Of a stretch of DNA of 64,000 nt, positions 27,865 through 36,156 are shown one piece after another. The position numbers and the translations under genes are program-made. The stretch covers positions 248,001-312,000 of the forward strand of contig NZ_AUFF01000002.1 of NCBI RefSeq assembly GCF_000426365.1, written 5' to 3'. The DNA is from Arenimonas composti TR7-09 = DSM 18010 (GTDB taxonomy: Bacteria; Pseudomonadota; Gammaproteobacteria; Xanthomonadales; Xanthomonadaceae). How positions within the stretch are numbered: the stretch's first letter is position 1; each line of letters begins with the position of its first letter. A model generated the notes under the pieces. That model saw only the letters and a list, made by a program, of their open reading frames with translations, searched no databases and was not told the origin of the DNA.

Positions 27865-28965
27865 ATGCCCTTCGCCCCCGTCCCCGAACTGCTGGAAGAA
27901 CTGCGCGCCGGCCGCATGGTCGTGATCGTCGACGACGAGGACCGCGAGAACGAGGGCGACCTGATCATGGCCGCCGAGCTGGTGAAGCCCTCGGACATCA
28001 ATTTCATGGTGACGCACGCGCGCGGGCTGGTCTGCCTGTCGCTGACGCGCGAGCGCTGCCGCCAGCTCGGGCTGGGGCCGATGGTCCGCGACAACGCCTC
28101 GCCCTACCATACCAACTTCACCGTCTCGATCGAGGCGGCCGAGGGCGTCACCACCGGCATCAGCGCCTACGACCGCGCCCACACGATCCGCACCGCGGTG
28201 CGCCCCGACGCGAGCGCTGACGATCTGGTGATGCCCGGCCACATCTTCCCGCTGATGGCGCAGCCCGGCGGCGTGCTGACCCGCGCCGGCCACACCGAAG
28301 CCGCCGCCGACCTGGCGCGGCTCGCGGGGCTGGAACCGGCCGGTGTGCTGGTCGAGATCCTGAACCCCGACGGCTCGATGGCACGGCGGCCGGAGCTCGA
28401 GGCCTTCGCCCGCGAGCACGGGCTGAAGATCGGCTCGATCGAGGCACTGATCCGGCACCGCCTGGAGACCGAACACACCGTCGAGCGGATCGACGAGCGC
28501 GGCATCGACACCGCGCACGGCGGATTCCGCCTGCTGACCTACCGCGACCGCGTCAGCCGCGAGCTGCATTTCGCGCTGGTGCACGGCACGCCGCGCGCCG
28601 ACACGCCGACGCTGGTGCGCGTGCACGTGCAGAACCCGCTGAGCGACGTGCTGCAGTGGCGGCGCGCCGATTTCGGCATCGGCGTGCACGAGGCGATGGC
28701 GGCGGTGGCCGCGGCCGGCGAGGGCGTGGTGGTGGTGCTGGCTGAACCGCACGGCGCCGACGAGCTGCTGGCGCGCATCACCGAGGCCGACGACGCGGCG
28801 GCGGCCTCCGGCAAGGGCCCGAAGGTGCGCGAATGGCGCCGCAACGGCGCCGGCGCGCAGATCCTGGCTGACGTCGGGCTCGGCAAGCTGCGCGTGCTCG
28901 GCACGCCGCGGCGGCAGGTCGGCCTGGCAGGCTTCGGACTCGAGGTCGTCGAGTACGTGCGCTGA
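27865..28965 (+). CDS. ribB: 3,4-dihydroxy-2-butanone-4-phosphate synthase with degenerate GTP cyclohydrolase II domain
   Basis: A 366-aa RibBA-like protein. The N-terminal DHBP synthase domain (about residues 5-205) is intact: [28 protein letters not shown]-like [22 protein letters not shown], and the catalytic loop HIFPL...RAGHTEAA. The C-terminal RibA-like domain lacks its zinc ligands: where active RibA has a CxxGD...RCDCG segment, this protein reads VQNPLSD...RRADFG. The GTP-binding RQEGRGIGL motif is also gone ([10 protein letters not shown]). It therefore should make the four-carbon unit only, and a separate ribA is expected elsewhere. Such RibBX-type fusions are common in gammaproteobacteria. 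Confidence 0.95.
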
Positions 28966-29023
28966 GCCGAAAACCGGGCCGAAAACCCGGGTCGAAAACC
29001 GGGGTCGGAGTACATTCCCGGGT
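28966..29023. repeat. tandem CCGAAAACCGGG units and a GGGGTCGGAGTAC repeat copy
   Basis: Right after the ribB stop come three tandem units (CCGAAAACCGGG, CCGAAAACCCGGG, TCGAAAACCGGGG). The last merges into GAAAACCGGGGTCGGAGTAC followed by ATTCCCGGG. An inverted copy of the latter occurs at 59035-59061 and a related one forms the palindrome at 17302-17369. The remaining gap to 29168 holds no recognisable gene or promoter. Confidence 0.85.
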
Positions 29024-29168
29024 TCCAATGCCGCGGGTTCCGGTGCCGGAGTAGTTTTCCGGTTCACGTCCACGCCGAATTCCTACGCCGCGGCGAGCCC
29101 GTGGCGGAGGCGCCGCGCGCGGCGACGAGGCATCGTCGATCCAGGTTCACCGCGCACTGGATCGCCGC

Positions 29169-30419
29169 ATGGACGCGCCGCTGTTCCGCCCGCAGGTGCT
29201 GGAAGCGAAAGCCGAAACCGGGCTCGGCACGATCGCGCTCGGGCAGCCGCTGTCGCGCTGGCTGCTCGCCGCGTTCGCGCTGCTGGCGACGGCGGCGGTC
29301 GTGGTTTTCCTCGCCACCGCCGACTACAGCCGCCGCACCCGCGTCGCCGGCCAGCTGGTGCCGCGCGACGGCCTCGCCAGCGCGGTGTCGCCGGTCGCCG
29401 GCACCGTGCTGTCGCTGCGCGTGCGCGAAGGCGACGCCGTGCGCGCCGGCGACGTGCTCGCGATCGTCGCCACCAGCCGGGTCACCCGCCGCGACGGCGA
29501 CACCGCGCGCGTCGCCGAAACCGCCCTCGCCGAACGTCGCAGCGCGCTGGTCGCCGGTTACGCCGCGCAGCGCGCCCAGCTCGAGGCGCAGCGCGACGGC
29601 GTCACCGCCCAGCTGCAGGCGCTGGCACTCGAACTCGTCCAGGTCGACGCCGAACGCCTGACCCGCGCCCGCCAGCAGGAACTCGCCGAAGCGGCCCTCG
29701 ACCGCTATCGCGAGCTGCACGCGCGCCGCTTCGTCACCGCGCTCGAGCTGCAGCAGCGCGAGGCCGCGGCGCTGGAACAGCGCGCGCTCGCACAGGCGGC
29801 CGCACGCCAGCACGCGGCGCTGCGCCGGCAGCAGTCGCAGCTCACGCAGGCGCGCGACGAGATGCCGGCGCGGCTGGCGGCCCTTGACGCGGCGCAGCAG
29901 CGCGAACTCGCGGCGCTGGCGCAGGAAGCCGCCGACACCGCCGCCCGCGCCGAGGCGGTGATCGTCGCCGCCGCCGACGGCAGCATCGCCACGCGCCTGG
30001 TGGAACCGGGACAGGCGGTGCTGGCCGGGCAGCCGCTGCTGGCGCTGCTGCCGGCCGATGCGACCCTCGAGGCGCATCTGGCGGTGCCGAGCCGCGCGGT
30101 CGGCTTCGTGGCCCCCGGCGACCGCGTGCTGCTGCGTTACGACGCCTTCCCGTACCAGAAGTTCGGCCAGCATCCGGGCACCGTGCTGCGCGTCTCGCGC
30201 AGTGCTTCGGTGGGCGAGGGCGGCGATGGCGAGCCGCTGTACCGGGTAGTGGTGGCGCCGGCGCGGGCCGAGGTCGTCGCCTTCGGCCGCGGCGAACCGC
30301 TGCGCCCCGGCATGCGACTCGAAGCCGACCTGCTCGGCGAGCGCCGGCGCCTCTGGGAATGGCTGCTCGAACCGCTGCAGGCGCTCGACGGTGCCGTGCG
30401 CGAGCACGGGCGGGGCTGA
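29169..30419 (+). CDS. HlyD-family membrane-fusion protein for bacteriocin-type export
   Basis: A 416-aa periplasmic adaptor. One membrane helix lies at about residues 32-52, followed by a lipoyl/beta-barrel half (VSPVAGTVLSLRVREGDAVRAGD), a long coiled-coil hairpin (about 110-260, Ala/Gln/Arg-rich) and the second half. The late motif RYDAFPYQKFGQHPGTVLRVSRSA is characteristic of CvaA/RaxA-type adaptors working with C39-peptidase ABC exporters. It should link the inner-membrane exporter encoded 1 bp downstream to a TolC-type channel encoded elsewhere. The pair lies between ribB and ribH. ATG 29169 gives MDAPLFRPQVLEAK, a normal start for this family. Confidence 0.93.
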   Translation: MDAPLFRPQVLEAKAETGLGTIALGQPLSRWLLAAFALLATAAVVVFLATADYSRRTRVAGQLVPRDGLASAVSPVAGTVLSLRVREGDAVRAGDVLAIVATSRVTRRDGDTARVAETALAERRSALVAGYAAQRAQLEAQRDGVTAQLQALALELVQVDAERLTRARQQELAEAALDRYRELHARRFVTALELQQREAAALEQRALAQAAARQHAALRRQQSQLTQARDEMPARLAALDAAQQRELAALAQEAADTAARAEAVIVAAADGSIATRLVEPGQAVLAGQPLLALLPADATLEAHLAVPSRAVGFVAPGDRVLLRYDAFPYQKFGQHPGTVLRVSRSASVGEGGDGEPLYRVVVAPARAEVVAFGRGEPLRPGMRLEADLLGERRRLWEWLLEPLQALDGAVREHGRG

Positions 30420-30420
30420 C

Positions 30421-32550
30421 GTGGAAGCGATCCGGCAATCCGCGGTCGGCGAATGCGGCCTGGCCTGCCTGGCGATGGTCGCGGAACACCATGGCCACCG
30501 CATCGGCCTGCCGGCGCTGCGCCAGCGCTTCCCGCTGTCGCTGAAAGGCGCCTCGCTGGCGCGGCTGGTGGCGATCGCCGGCGCCCTCGGGCTGCAGGCG
30601 CGGGCGCTGCGGCTCGAGCCGGCGCAGCTGCGCGAGCTGAAGCTGCCATGCGTGCTGCACTGGAACCTCGACCATTACGTCGTGCTCGAGAAGGTCGGGC
30701 GGCGGGGGCTGCGCATCCTCGATCCGGCGCTCGGGCGCCGGCACGTGGATGCCGACGAAGTCGCGCGCCGCTTCACCGGCGTCGCGCTCGAACTCACGCC
30801 GGCCGCCGCCTTCGCGCCGCGCGCCGCGCCGCCGCCGCTGCGCCTGCGCCAGCTGCTCGGCCGCGTCGCCGGCGGCCTGCGCGCGCTCGGCCTGCTGCTG
30901 GCGCTGTCGCTGGCGCTGCAGGTGTTCGTTCTGCTGGCGCCGATGCAGCTGCAGTGGATCGTCGACCACGCCCTGGTCGCCGCCGACCGCGAACTGCTGG
31001 CGGTGATCGCGCTCGGTTTCGCGCTGCTGCTGGCGCTGCAGGTCGGCGTCGGCCTGTTGCGCGGCTGGACCCTGGTCGCGCTGGCGGCGGCGCTGGGCCG
31101 GCAGTGGACCGGCAACGTGCTCGCGCATGCGCTGCGGCTGCCGCTCGACTTCTTCCAGAAACGCCATCTCGGTGACGTCGTGTCGCGGCTCGGCGCGGTG
31201 CAGGCGATCCAGCGCACGCTCACCACCGGCTTCGTCGAGGCACTCGTGGACGGCGTGCTGGCCGTGGCGACGGCGACGATGATGCTGCTCTACAGCCCGA
31301 AACTCGCGGCGATAGGCTTCCTCGCCGTCGCGCTCTACCTGGCGGCGCGGATGACGGCCTTCCCGCACCTGCGCGAGGCCAACGAACGCCAGCTCGAGGC
31401 GGCGGCGAGCCAGCAGGGCCACCTGCTCGAATCGCTGCGCGGCATCCAGAGCCTGAAGGTCGCCGGCCAGGAGCCGGCACGCGCGGCGCAGTACCGCAGC
31501 CTGGTCGTCGACACCCTCAACCGCGAACTGCGGCTGGCGACCTTCGGGCTCGGCTTCTCCTCCGGCCAGCAGCTGCTGTTCGGCGGCGAACGCGTGCTGG
31601 TGATCTGGCTCGGCGCCGGCCTGGTGCTCGACGGCGGCTTCTCGGTCGGCATGCTGCTCGCGTACCTGGCGTGGAAGGACCAGTTCGCGGCGCGCACCGC
31701 GACCCTGGTCGACCGCCTGGTGGAACTGCGCATGCTGCGCCTGCACGGCGAGCGCCTGGCCGACATCGTGCTCGCGGAACCCGAGCACGACCCGGCGTCG
31801 GATTTCGAGCAGGCGCCGGCGTCGCTGCGCATCGAGGTGCGGGAGCTCGGCTTCCGCTACGCCGACGGCGAACCCTGGGTGCTGCGCGGCTGCAGCTTCC
31901 ATGTCGACGAGGGCGAGACGGTGGCGATCGTCGGTGCCTCCGGTGGCGGCAAGACGACGCTGCTGAAGCTCGTGCTCGGCCTGCTGTCGCCGGAGGAGGG
32001 GCGGGTCCTGGTCGGCGGCCGCGACCTGCGCCGGCTGGGCGCCCGCAACTTCCGCGCCCAGGTCGGCGTGGTGATGCAGGACGACCAGCTGTTCGCCGGT
32101 TCGATCGCCGACAACATCGCCCTCGGCGACGACCGCGTCGACATGGTCCGGGTCGAGGCCGCTGCCCGCGCCGCCGCGGTGCACGACGAGATCGCGGCGA
32201 TGCCGATGGGCTACCACAGCCTGATCGGCGACATGGGCAGCGCCCTCAGCGGCGGCCAGAAGCAGCGGGTGATCCTGGCGCGGGCGCTGTACCGGCAGCC
32301 GCGGCTGCTGGTGCTCGACGAGGCCACCAGCCACCTCGACGTCGGCAACGAGCAGCGGGTCAACGCGGCGATCCGGCAGCTGCGGATCGGCAAGCTGATC
32401 GTCGCCCACCGCCCGGAAACCATCGCCGCCGCCGACCGGGTGCTGGTGCTGCACGGCGGCCGGATCGTGCAGGAAGCCCGGCCCGGGCTGCCGCCGGGGC
32501 CGCCGGCCCGCGCCGCCCCGGAAGCCGCGAGCCCGGTCCCCACGGGGTAA
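30421..32550 (+). CDS. C39-peptidase ABC exporter for double-glycine-leader peptides
   Basis: A 709-aa bacteriocin-type exporter in three parts. The N-terminal C39 peptidase covers about residues 1-130, with Cys12 in [10 protein letters not shown], His85 in WNLDHYVVL and Asp101 in ILDPALG. Six membrane helices span about 145-430. The ATPase has Walker [10 protein letters not shown], signature ALSGGQKQR and Walker [13 protein letters not shown]. All three catalytic residues are present, so it should cut leaders after Gly-Gly and export the core. The GTG at 30421 follows the HlyD stop by 1 bp. A longer reading from 30391 would overlap hlyD. The obvious substrate is the peptide at 35362. Confidence 0.95.
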
Positions 32551-32553
32551 ACT
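32548..32553 (+). promoter_or_regulatory. candidate -10 element upstream of ribH
   Basis: TAAACT overlaps the exporter stop codon and lies 28 bp before the ribH ATG. The -35 region is not recognisable. With the hexamers before ribE and ribB it suggests separate transcription starts for rib genes that follow inserted DNA. Confidence 0.3.
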
Positions 32554-32581
32554 TGCGGCCCCTTCGTCCCCGCCCACCCCG

Positions 32582-33049
32582 ATGACCGACTACGCAGGCG
32601 ATGTCCGCAGCCCCGACGGGGCCCGCTACGCCATCGTCGCCAGCCGCTGGAACCCGCGCATCGTCGACGCCCTCGTCGACGGCGCCCGCCGTGCCTTCGC
32701 CGGCAACGGCGTGGCTGCCGACGCCGTCGACCTGATCCGGGTGCCCGGCGCCTGGGAGCTGCCGATGGCGGCCGCGCACGCGGTCGACCGCGGCCAGTAC
32801 GCCGGCATCGTCGCCCTCGGCTGCGTGGTCCGCGGCGACACCCGCCACTACGAACACGTCGCCGACGAATGCGCCCGCGGCCTGATGCGCGTCGCCCTGG
32901 ACACCGGCGTGCCGGTCGCCAACGGCGTGCTCGCGGTCGAGCGCCACGAGGACGCCGTCGCCCGCGCCGGTGGCGCCCACGGCAACAAGGGCGAGGAATG
33001 CGCCCTGGCCATCGTCGAGATGGCGAACCTGATCGGAAAACTCGCATGA
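32582..33049 (+). CDS. ribH: 6,7-dimethyl-8-ribityllumazine synthase
   Basis: A 155-aa lumazine synthase that condenses the RibB product with 5-amino-6-ribitylaminouracil. Family motifs are [20 protein letters not shown] (substrate loop), [15 protein letters not shown] and [17 protein letters not shown], the last with the catalytic His. The C-terminal [17 protein letters not shown] is also typical. It usually follows ribB directly; here an HlyD/ABC export pair intervenes. The stop overlaps the nusB ATG (ATGA). Confidence 0.97.
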
Positions 33050-35340: not shown

Positions 35341-35361
35341 TGCACACCAGGGAGTGGTGTC

Positions 35362-35583
35362 ATGCGTGAACTCACCCAGATGGAACTGGAGATGGTGGAG
35401 GGCGGCAATGCGGCGCTGGTGCCGGTGATCATCGGAATCATCGTGCTCGCCGGCGTGGCGGTGGCCGCGTACGCGGTGGCGAACGAATGCGACGTCAGCT
35501 TCGAGGTCGGCGTCGACGGCATGTCGTTCGAGATCGACTGCAGCGGCAACCCCGACCCCACCGCCACCTGCCCCGGCGGCTGA
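35362..35583 (+). CDS. double-glycine-leader peptide, bacteriocin-like precursor
   Basis: A 73-aa precursor. The leader MRELTQMELEMVEGG fits the double-glycine consensus exactly: Leu -12, Thr -11, Glu -8, Leu -7, Val -4, Gly-Gly -2/-1. The 58-residue core has a hydrophobic, Gly/Ala-rich segment (about residues 17-40) with GxxxG-like spacing and then an acidic tail with Cys43, Cys60 and Cys70. The parts CDVSFEV and MSFEIDC are near mirror images. It has a good ribosome binding site (AGGGAG, 7 bp spacing). The C39 exporter at 30421 is the probable processing and export machine. It could be a class II-type bacteriocin, a toxin or a signal. Confidence 0.85.
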   Translation: MRELTQMELEMVEGGNAALVPVIIGIIVLAGVAVAAYAVANECDVSFEVGVDGMSFEIDCSGNPDPTATCPGG

Positions 35584-35637: not shown

Positions 35638-36156
35638 ATGCGTCGTCTTCTCCGACATCCTGAAACCGCCGGTCTGCTGCTCGGCCTGTCCGACGTGATT
35701 TTCCGCGCGCTCGCCGCGGCGACGTGGCCACCGTCCGGCGGCCGCCTGTTCGGACGCTTCTTCCTCGCAAACGTGCACCACCGTGTCGAGAAGCGCGCGT
35801 TTGGCCTCGACAGTCTCGAGTGGTTCGGCATCGCCGCGGTCGTGGTGGTACTGATGTACGGCGGCGTGCGCCTGTGCAGCCACGTCGCCCATCGCGATTA
35901 CGCCGGCTACCGGCTCGCGCGCTTCGCGGTCGCGGCGATGGCTGGCGTGCTGATGCTGAACACCGCCGAGGCCCTGCTCACCGGCAAGGTCACCGACTGG
36001 TTCGGGCTGGTTCATGGCAACGGCGGAAAGGCGCTCAACCTGGGCGACCTCGTTGCCTGGACGGCCGCGGTACTGGTGCCGGGCGGAATCTTCGCCGGAG
36101 TGATCGGCTACCTGCGCGACCCCGCGAAGTACGTGCCTGGGGCTCAGCCTGGCTGA
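35638..36156 (+). CDS. signal peptidase II (LspA)-like membrane protein linked to the double-glycine peptide
   Basis: A 172-aa protein with about four membrane helices. The order of conserved elements follows LspA: D19-x3-R23 in the first helix, Asn45 in the loop where LspA has NxGxAF, then N108-x2-E111 before G116-K-V-T-D120 and N134-L-G-D137. Asp120 and Asp137 occupy the positions of the catalytic aspartates. The Arg after the Asp/Glu of the third motif is replaced by Ala112, and overall sequence is divergent, so it is unlikely to be the housekeeping enzyme. It lies 54 bp after the peptide gene and may process, export or neutralise it (inference). The stop overlaps the convergent UDG gene by 13 bp. 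Confidence 0.7.
   Translation: MRRLLRHPETAGLLLGLSDVIFRALAAATWPPSGGRLFGRFFLANVHHRVEKRAFGLDSLEWFGIAAVVVVLMYGGVRLCSHVAHRDYAGYRLARFAVAAMAGVLMLNTAEALLTGKVTDWFGLVHGNGGKALNLGDLVAWTAAVLVPGGIFAGVIGYLRDPAKYVPGAQPG

What the first reader, a model, noticed from the sequence alone, without database searches (positions are those of the whole stretch)
35362..35583. Bacteriocin-like precursor with a transmembrane core and a mirror-like cysteine tail
The leader matches the double-glycine consensus at every position from -12 to -1. The core is unusual: a continuous 24-residue hydrophobic segment right after the cleavage site, then an acidic tail with three cysteines and the near-mirror pair CDVSFEV / MSFEIDC. 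The odd cysteine count suggests one disulfide plus one free or intermolecular cysteine.
Basis: partly seen in the sequence, partly recalled or inferred. Interest (0 to 1): 0.7.

Follow-up and report, generated by a model that had tools for sequence, protein, structure and literature searches.

The report
Bacteriocin paired with a peptidase-like guard
A small bacterial peptide gene that looks like a secreted antibacterial toxin sits, in every relative found, next to a gene for a worn-down copy of the lipoprotein-processing enzyme LspA, which probably protects the producer and hints at what the peptide attacks.

Summary
The ORF is real and as described: a 73-aa double-glycine precursor with a 24-residue hydrophobic segment and three cysteines. 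Six intact members are known (four Arenimonas including the window, two in another genus of the family) plus one broken copy. All intact ones share leader, hydrophobic segment and a two-cysteine tail; the third cysteine is peculiar to this species. The "mirror" pair is a conserved Cys-closed tail, probably a beta-hairpin, and in the one pair compared it is the most constrained part of the gene.

In all seven loci an LspA-like (signal peptidase II) membrane protein follows the precursor. Searching with this partner alone led to two of the precursors. In A. terrae peptide, LspA-like gene and C39 exporter form one operon. The partner keeps LspA signature residues but has lost Arg110 in 8 of 8 copies and a catalytic aspartate in 3 of 8, so it looks like a non-catalytic descendant.

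Best reading: a class II microcin-like bacteriocin with an LspA-derived immunity protein (about 0.6). Bolder reading: the peptide mimics a prolipoprotein and blocks LspA (about 0.3). No killing activity has been shown.

The parts
35362..35583 (+). GG-leader precursor peptide, 73 aa
   Evidence: ORF; NCBIfam TIGR03949 24.7 bits over cut-off 21.5; relatives in Arenimonas and in the genus of G087
35362..35406 (+). leader MRELTQMELEMVEGG, cleaved after GG (inferred)
   Evidence: GG kept in 6 of 6 intact members; C39 exporter in the genome
35410..35481 (+). 24-residue hydrophobic segment, residues 17-40, probable transmembrane helix
   Evidence: hydropathy; helix 19-41 in a low-confidence model, mean pLDDT 58.9
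35488..35541 (+). Cys43 to Cys60: conserved Cys-flanked tail, probable disulfide-closed beta-hairpin
   Evidence: C43, S46, C60 invariant in 6 of 6; strands 44-50 and 53-59 in a low-confidence model; lowest dN/dS of the gene
35349..35354 (+). ribosome-binding-like AGGGAG of the precursor
35638..36156 (+). LspA-like (signal peptidase II-like) membrane protein, 172 aa, candidate immunity protein
   Evidence: 54 bp after the precursor; family matches PF01252 in 7 of 8 members, 4 over the cut-off, but not this copy on its own; hhalign with 39 LspA E 1.1e-6; follows the precursor in all 7 loci
29169..30419 (+). HlyD-type membrane fusion protein
   Evidence: PF13437 and TIGR01843 matches
30421..32550 (+). 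C39-peptidase ABC exporter (ORF open from 30391; GTG at 30421 directly follows the HlyD stop)
   Evidence: PF03412 112.7 bits; only C39 match in the genome; start

Best explanation
This is a chromosomal class II microcin-like bacteriocin of Arenimonas with its own immunity gene. The C39 exporter cuts the leader after Gly-Gly and, with HlyD (and presumably a TolC-type pore), exports a 58-residue peptide: a hydrophobic helix followed by a tail closed by a Cys43-Cys60 disulfide. In a sensitive relative the peptide would reach the inner membrane, insert the helix and leave the acidic hairpin in the periplasm. The next gene encodes a divergent, probably non-catalytic descendant of lipoprotein signal peptidase LspA. 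It most likely protects the producer by binding the peptide in the membrane, as LspA binds the helix-then-cysteine end of prolipoproteins. Shown by sequence: the ORF, its conservation, the constant pairing with the LspA-like gene, the LspA homology of that family and its lost active-site residues, and the exporter. Inferred: cleavage, export, disulfide, killing and immunity. Still weaker: that the target is LspA itself (about 0.3).
For: Precursor relatives keep leader, helix and C..C tail. The LspA-like gene follows the precursor in 7 of 7 loci, 48-60 bp downstream in the 6 intact ones, and in the genus both occur in the same 4 of 27 genomes. A search with the LspA-like family alone in the genus of G087 found 3 of 17 genomes; 2 carry an intact GG precursor just upstream and 1 a broken one. 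In A. terrae the exporter start codon overlaps the LspA-like stop codon. LspA homology: PF01252 in 7 of 8 members, E 6.3e-8 to 2e-3, 4 over the cut-off of 25 bits; the only PDB match of the family profile is S. aureus LspA, E 0.0041; hhalign against 39 LspA: probability 91, E 1.1e-6, against 0.58 for reversed LspA and 0.06 for PgpA. Arg110 lost 8 of 8, Asp109 to Glu 8 of 8, Asp118 lost 3 of 8, Asp136 kept 8 of 8; in S. aureus LspA R110A, D118N and D136N have 0% activity (PMC6952399 Table 1, passage). Housekeeping LspA is elsewhere in the genome. Adjacent inner-membrane immunity proteins of 51-216 aa are typical of class II microcins (PMC10233263, passages).
Against: No antibacterial activity, export or expression was tested. 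The window's own LspA-like copy has no Pfam or NCBIfam match by itself, and an HMM of 39 Xanthomonadales LspAs scored only 1 of 6 LspA-like proteins above the best shuffle. The AlphaFold model of the LspA-like protein is poor (mean pLDDT 50.6) and Foldseek found nothing. In the window copy both catalytic-dyad aspartates are still present, so it could conceivably be active. In the window the exporter lies 3 kb away behind four housekeeping genes; no such exporter lies on the 10-kb and 5.8-kb stretches read around the G519 and G520 pairs, or on the 15 kb around that of G087. Only seven loci are known. No sigma-70-type promoter was found.
Confidence: 0.6

Rival explanations
1. LspA-targeting bacteriocin (a sharper form of the best explanation): the peptide is a gene-encoded prolipoprotein mimic. 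Its helix ends in a cysteine at the outer membrane face, and the hairpin sits on the LspA beta-cradle; it blocks housekeeping LspA of competitors. The LspA-like partner is a decoy or a peptide-binding double of the target.
For: Partner is LspA-derived. Producers of both known natural LspA inhibitors carry extra lspA genes in the biosynthetic cluster: lspA3/lspA4 for myxovirescin, globF for globomycin (PMC9943842, passages). LspA is modelled to bind a helical signal peptide ending in Cys, and its beta-cradle is proposed to hold the residues after the cleavage site (PMC6952399, passages). Cys43 at the helix end is invariant in 6 of 6, and the tail is the most constrained part.
Against: No lipobox: the residues before Cys43 are ANE, YKE, SQG, SQG, AKD, YKG. 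An immunity protein need not resemble the target. No docking or assay was possible.
Confidence: 0.3
2. Proteolytic immunity or maturation: the LspA-like protein is an active aspartyl protease that cuts the peptide near Cys43, destroying it in the producer or releasing the hairpin.
For: Both dyad aspartates (Asp118 and Asp136 equivalents) are kept in 5 of 8 copies, including the window's. Proteolytic immunity to a Vibrio cholerae microcin is in print (title seen in a reference list only; paper not held).
Against: Arg110 is lost in 8 of 8 and replaced by Lys in only one; R110A kills S. aureus LspA. Asp118 is Asn in A. terrae and G198, and D118N has 0% activity, although there the tail is well conserved.
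Confidence: 0.15
3. Signalling peptide or another non-killing secreted peptide, such as a pheromone exported by the same C39 transporter.
For: GG leaders and C39 exporters also serve pheromones (recalled); a weak match to NCBIfam pheromone VP1 lies mainly in the leader (E 0.024, 14.9 bits against a cut-off of 85).
Against: Neighbours are ribH, thiL and pgpA by family match, and nusB, uracil-DNA glycosylase-like and glcD-like genes by eye; no sensor kinase was recognised among them. An LspA-type membrane partner is not a receptor of a kind I know.
Confidence: 0.1
4. Half of a two-peptide class IIb bacteriocin of the lactobin A/cerein 7B kind, as the NCBIfam label would have it.
For: TIGR03949 over its cut-off for the window peptide; 5 of 6 members match at E up to 1.
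Against: The match covers residues 3-37 only. No second GG peptide was found in the window by the pattern scan, there is no GxxxG in the core, and the conserved part is the C..C tail outside the model. Only 1 of 27 genomes of the genus passes the cut-off.
Confidence: 0.05

Closest known systems
Class IIa microcins (MccV type; CvaC/Cvi/CvaB/CvaA)
   Same: GG leader, C39 ABC exporter plus HlyD, adjacent membrane immunity candidate, cysteines for a disulfide, no Gly/Ser-rich siderophore tail
   Different: Chromosomal, exporter 3 kb away here, unrelated mature peptide, partner derived from LspA (no such immunity protein seen in the listings)
NCBIfam TIGR03949, class IIb bacteriocin, lactobin A/cerein 7B family
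   Same: Leader and the start of the hydrophobic segment score over the cut-off
   Different: No partner peptide found, no GxxxG, conserved Cys-closed tail
LspA (signal peptidase II, Pfam PF01252 Peptidase_A8)
   Same: The partner protein has the LspA motif order, with the Asn133 and Asp136 equivalents in 8 of 8
   Different: Arg110 lost 8 of 8, Asp109 to Glu 8 of 8, Asp118 lost 3 of 8; a separate clade from 39 LspAs
LspA paralogues of the myxovirescin (lspA3/lspA4) and globomycin (globF) clusters
   Same: An LspA homologue encoded beside an antibacterial product
   Different: Those products are not ribosomal (recalled); GlobF keeps all 14 conserved residues (PMC9943842, passage), the proteins here keep 5-7 of 14

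Membership tests
Class IIa microcin | N-terminal double-glycine leader | tested here: met
   6 of 6 intact members
Class IIa microcin | C39-peptidase ABC exporter and membrane fusion protein encoded in the genome | tested here: met
   same operon in A. terrae
Class IIa microcin | Adjacent inner-membrane immunity protein | tested here: inconclusive
   adjacent membrane protein in 7 of 7 loci; immunity itself not tested
Class IIa microcin | No Ser/Gly-rich siderophore-accepting C terminus | tested here: met
   tails
Class IIa microcin | Antibacterial activity, TolC export | not testable with these tools
   no experiment; tolC was not searched for
TIGR03949 lactobin A/cerein 7B class IIb | Score over the curated cut-off | tested here: met
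   24.7 against 21.5 bits; A. fontis copy 18.1, below
TIGR03949 lactobin A/cerein 7B class IIb | Second peptide and GxxxG motifs (recalled features) | tested here: not met
   no second GG ORF in the window (pattern scan); no GxxxG in the core (sequence)
LspA / Peptidase_A8 (partner protein) | Profile match | tested here: met
   7 of 8 members match, 4 over the cut-off; the window copy does not
LspA / Peptidase_A8 (partner protein) | Complete active site (14 conserved residues) | tested here: not met
   5-7 of 14 kept in 8 copies; 39 LspAs keep each residue in 38 or 39 of 39 (three of these residues' motifs were used to pick the 39)
LspA / Peptidase_A8 (partner protein) | LspA fold | tested here: inconclusive
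   model pLDDT 50.6, no Foldseek match

The most novel reading that the evidence does not exclude
A ribosomally made bacteriocin family that kills by imitating a prolipoprotein and blocking signal peptidase II, with immunity from a catalytically dead LspA descendant that traps the peptide. It would be a gene-encoded LspA inhibitor, beside the two natural products known (globomycin, myxovirescin; PMC9943842, passage).
Probability: 0.28. Interest if true: 0.85.

Novelty: new variant of a known kind. Interest (0 to 1): 0.6.

Why it matters
Immunity proteins of class II microcins cannot be located by conserved sequence features (PMC10233263, passage), so they rarely reveal a target. Here the partner is a descendant of a known enzyme, which turns an anonymous short peptide into a testable hypothesis about LspA. 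[quoted passage not shown] The partner gene also serves as bait: it led to two precursors in a second genus.

Tried and rejected
A weak genome match of the precursor on contig 9 (E 0.0118) lacks a GG leader and was set aside as chance. Nine other weak genus hits (E 0.04 to 0.6) were set aside without closer study. Order-level hits L062 and L063: L062 is inside a long protein; L063 is a GG peptide without the tail, leader similarity only. The LspA-like profile gave ten weak order-level hits (E 1e-4 to 1e-2): nine read as ordinary LspAs by sequence; the tenth, L071, in a 1430-aa frame, was not read. Plasmid searches found nothing for precursor or partner. Foldseek on the poor partner model was uninformative. 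A promoter/terminator scan found none. My first thought that Glu111 replaces a catalytic aspartate was wrong: the published dyad is Asp118/Asp136 (PMC6952399), so the window copy keeps the dyad and loses Arg110. A first leader pattern with an error in spacing found nothing useful and was corrected. The tree puts the 8 LspA-like proteins in one clade on very long branches; it cannot show where they came from. One search (198 genomes of the family) found 3 holders of the precursor, all in the genus; (369 genomes of the class, E up to 1e-6) found the LspA-like protein only in the own genome.

Full report
WHAT IS THERE. The ORF 35362-35583 encodes MRELTQMELEMVEGG followed by a 58-residue core. Third-position G+C is 0.92 and a ribosome-binding-like AGGGAG precedes the ATG. 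The core is a 24-residue hydrophobic segment, then a tail with seven acidic and no basic residues and Cys43, Cys60, Cys70. NCBIfam calls it class IIb bacteriocin, lactobin A/cerein 7B (24.7 bits, cut-off 21.5); Pfam Bacteriocin_IIc and MccV match below their cut-offs.

EXPORT. The only C39-peptidase protein found in the genome is the ABC exporter at 30421-32550. It directly follows a HlyD-type gene (29169-30419). Both lie between ribBA and ribH, about 3 kb upstream of the precursor, with ribH, nusB, thiL and pgpA between (ribH, thiL, pgpA by family match; ribBA and nusB by eye). Of 27 genomes of the genus, 9 have an exporter of this kind (63-68% identity in the other 8; G147 has two). All 4 genomes with the precursor are among these 9.

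RELATIVES OF THE PEPTIDE. In 27 genomes of the genus the precursor occurs in G000 (window), G076 (A. fontis), G103 (A. terrae) and G198. A scan of genome contigs found 171 candidate stretches, of which 2 encode a relative, A. fontis and A. terrae. In the genus of G087, G519 and G520 hold intact precursors and G087 a frame-broken one. The six intact peptides share M1 R2 E3 L4 E8 V12 G14 G15 V22 G25 C43 S46 C60. Between A. terrae and G198 the tail has the lowest dN (0.07 against dS 0.38), the hydrophobic segment changes almost freely (0.41 against 0.44), and the leader lies between (0.11 against 0.44); counts are small (4 nonsynonymous differences in 61 sites for the tail). So the 'near-mirror' tail is a constrained part. 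A low-confidence AlphaFold model gives helix 19-41 and strands 44-50 and 53-59, a hairpin closed by Cys43 and Cys60. Cys70 is not shared.

THE PARTNER. The next gene, 35638-36156, has no family match by itself. Its relatives follow the precursor in every locus: A. fontis (two tandem copies), A. terrae, G198, G087, G519, G520, with 48-60 bp between the genes in the six intact loci. In the genus, partner and precursor occur in the same 4 of 27 genomes. The search with the partner family alone in 17 genomes of the genus of G087 gave 3 hits; reading upstream of the two new ones gave the two new GG precursors. In A. terrae the order is HlyD, precursor, partner, exporter, and the exporter ATG overlaps the partner stop.

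THE PARTNER IS AN LspA DESCENDANT. Pfam Peptidase_A8 (signal peptidase II) matches 7 of 8 partner proteins: G087 6.3e-8, G520 1.7e-7, G519 3.4e-7, A. fontis copy 1 1.3e-6 (these four over the cut-off), G198 3e-4, A. fontis copy 2 7.9e-4, A. terrae 2e-3; the window copy does not match. The profile of five partner proteins has one match in the PDB sequences at E up to 10, S. aureus LspA 6ryo (E 0.0041). Profile-profile comparison of 8 partner proteins with 39 LspAs gives probability 91 and E 1.1e-6; controls: reversed LspA 0.58, PgpA 0.06. With only the five Arenimonas partner proteins the same comparison is weaker (probability 26, E 1.4e-4). Against this: an HMM of those 39 LspAs alone scored only one of six partner proteins above the best of 2400 shuffles, and the structure model is poor. 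Of the 14 residues conserved in LspA (PMC6952399, passages), the partners keep 5-7. Asp136 and Asn133 are kept in 8 of 8, Asp109 is Glu in 8 of 8, Arg110 is lost in 8 of 8 (Lys in one), and Asp118 is lost in 3 of 8. Published S. aureus mutants R110A, D118N and D136N have no activity. The genome has its ordinary LspA elsewhere. The 8 partners form one clade apart from 39 LspAs, on long branches.

HOW IT MOST LIKELY WORKS. Precursor, exporter and an adjacent inner-membrane protein match the published layout of class II microcins, whose immunity proteins are usually adjacent, membrane-bound and 51-216 aa (PMC10233263, passages). I therefore read the partner as the immunity protein. LspA is modelled to bind helical signal peptides that end in a cysteine at the outer face of the membrane, and its beta-cradle is proposed to hold the residues that follow. 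The mature peptide has that outline: a helix, an invariant cysteine at its end, and a constrained hairpin. A non-catalytic LspA descendant could trap it. If immunity resembles target, the target is LspA, as with the lspA copies in the myxovirescin and globomycin clusters (PMC9943842, passages). That last step is an inference at about 0.3; the residues before Cys43 are not a lipobox.

NOVELTY. Seven searches of the paper library bearing on this, one on proteolytic immunity and one for Arenimonas with microcin (no paper) listed nothing that, by title and abstract start, ties an LspA-like protein to immunity against a ribosomal bacteriocin. I read passages of five papers and otherwise only listings; none was read whole. 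I call it a new variant of class II microcins.

OTHER CARGO. Other exporter-bearing congeners carry different GG peptides: between pgpA and the uracil-DNA glycosylase-like gene in G213 (two peptides), at the same place in G147 (one clear, one doubtful), beside a second exporter in G147, and two upstream of HlyD in G198. The place after pgpA therefore looks like an exchangeable cargo slot for a shared exporter.

Noticed in passing
L048 11306-11869 (G213) and L050 12446-12806 (G147): At the place of the precursor, after pgpA, other Arenimonas genomes carry different GG peptides, in G213 two in a row, like a two-peptide bacteriocin; the slot seems to exchange cargo.
   Followed up: partly
L047 13868-14299 (G198): Two further GG-leader peptides rich in Gly and Ala lie upstream of HlyD, in addition to the relative of the window peptide.
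   Followed up: no
L112 6866-7515 (G087): A frame-broken precursor is followed by an open LspA-like gene with no such exporter on the 15-kb stretch read: possibly an orphan immunity gene.
   Followed up: partly
window 35090, 35216, 38711, 41484, 41537, 41564: Copies of a 16-base inverted-repeat-like element (GAGCGGCTTCAGCCGC, either strand), two of them just upstream of the precursor; REP-like.
   Followed up: no
window 27865-33049: The HlyD-C39 exporter pair sits inside the riboflavin gene row, between ribBA and ribH; in A. fontis and A. terrae it lies elsewhere nearby and ribBA-ribH are adjacent.
   Followed up: partly
L104-L108 (G128, G207, G164, G205, G147): Five Arenimonas genomes hold a second, identical or nearly identical LspA gene that forms its own clade beside their ordinary LspA, suggesting a recently spread element.
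   Followed up: no
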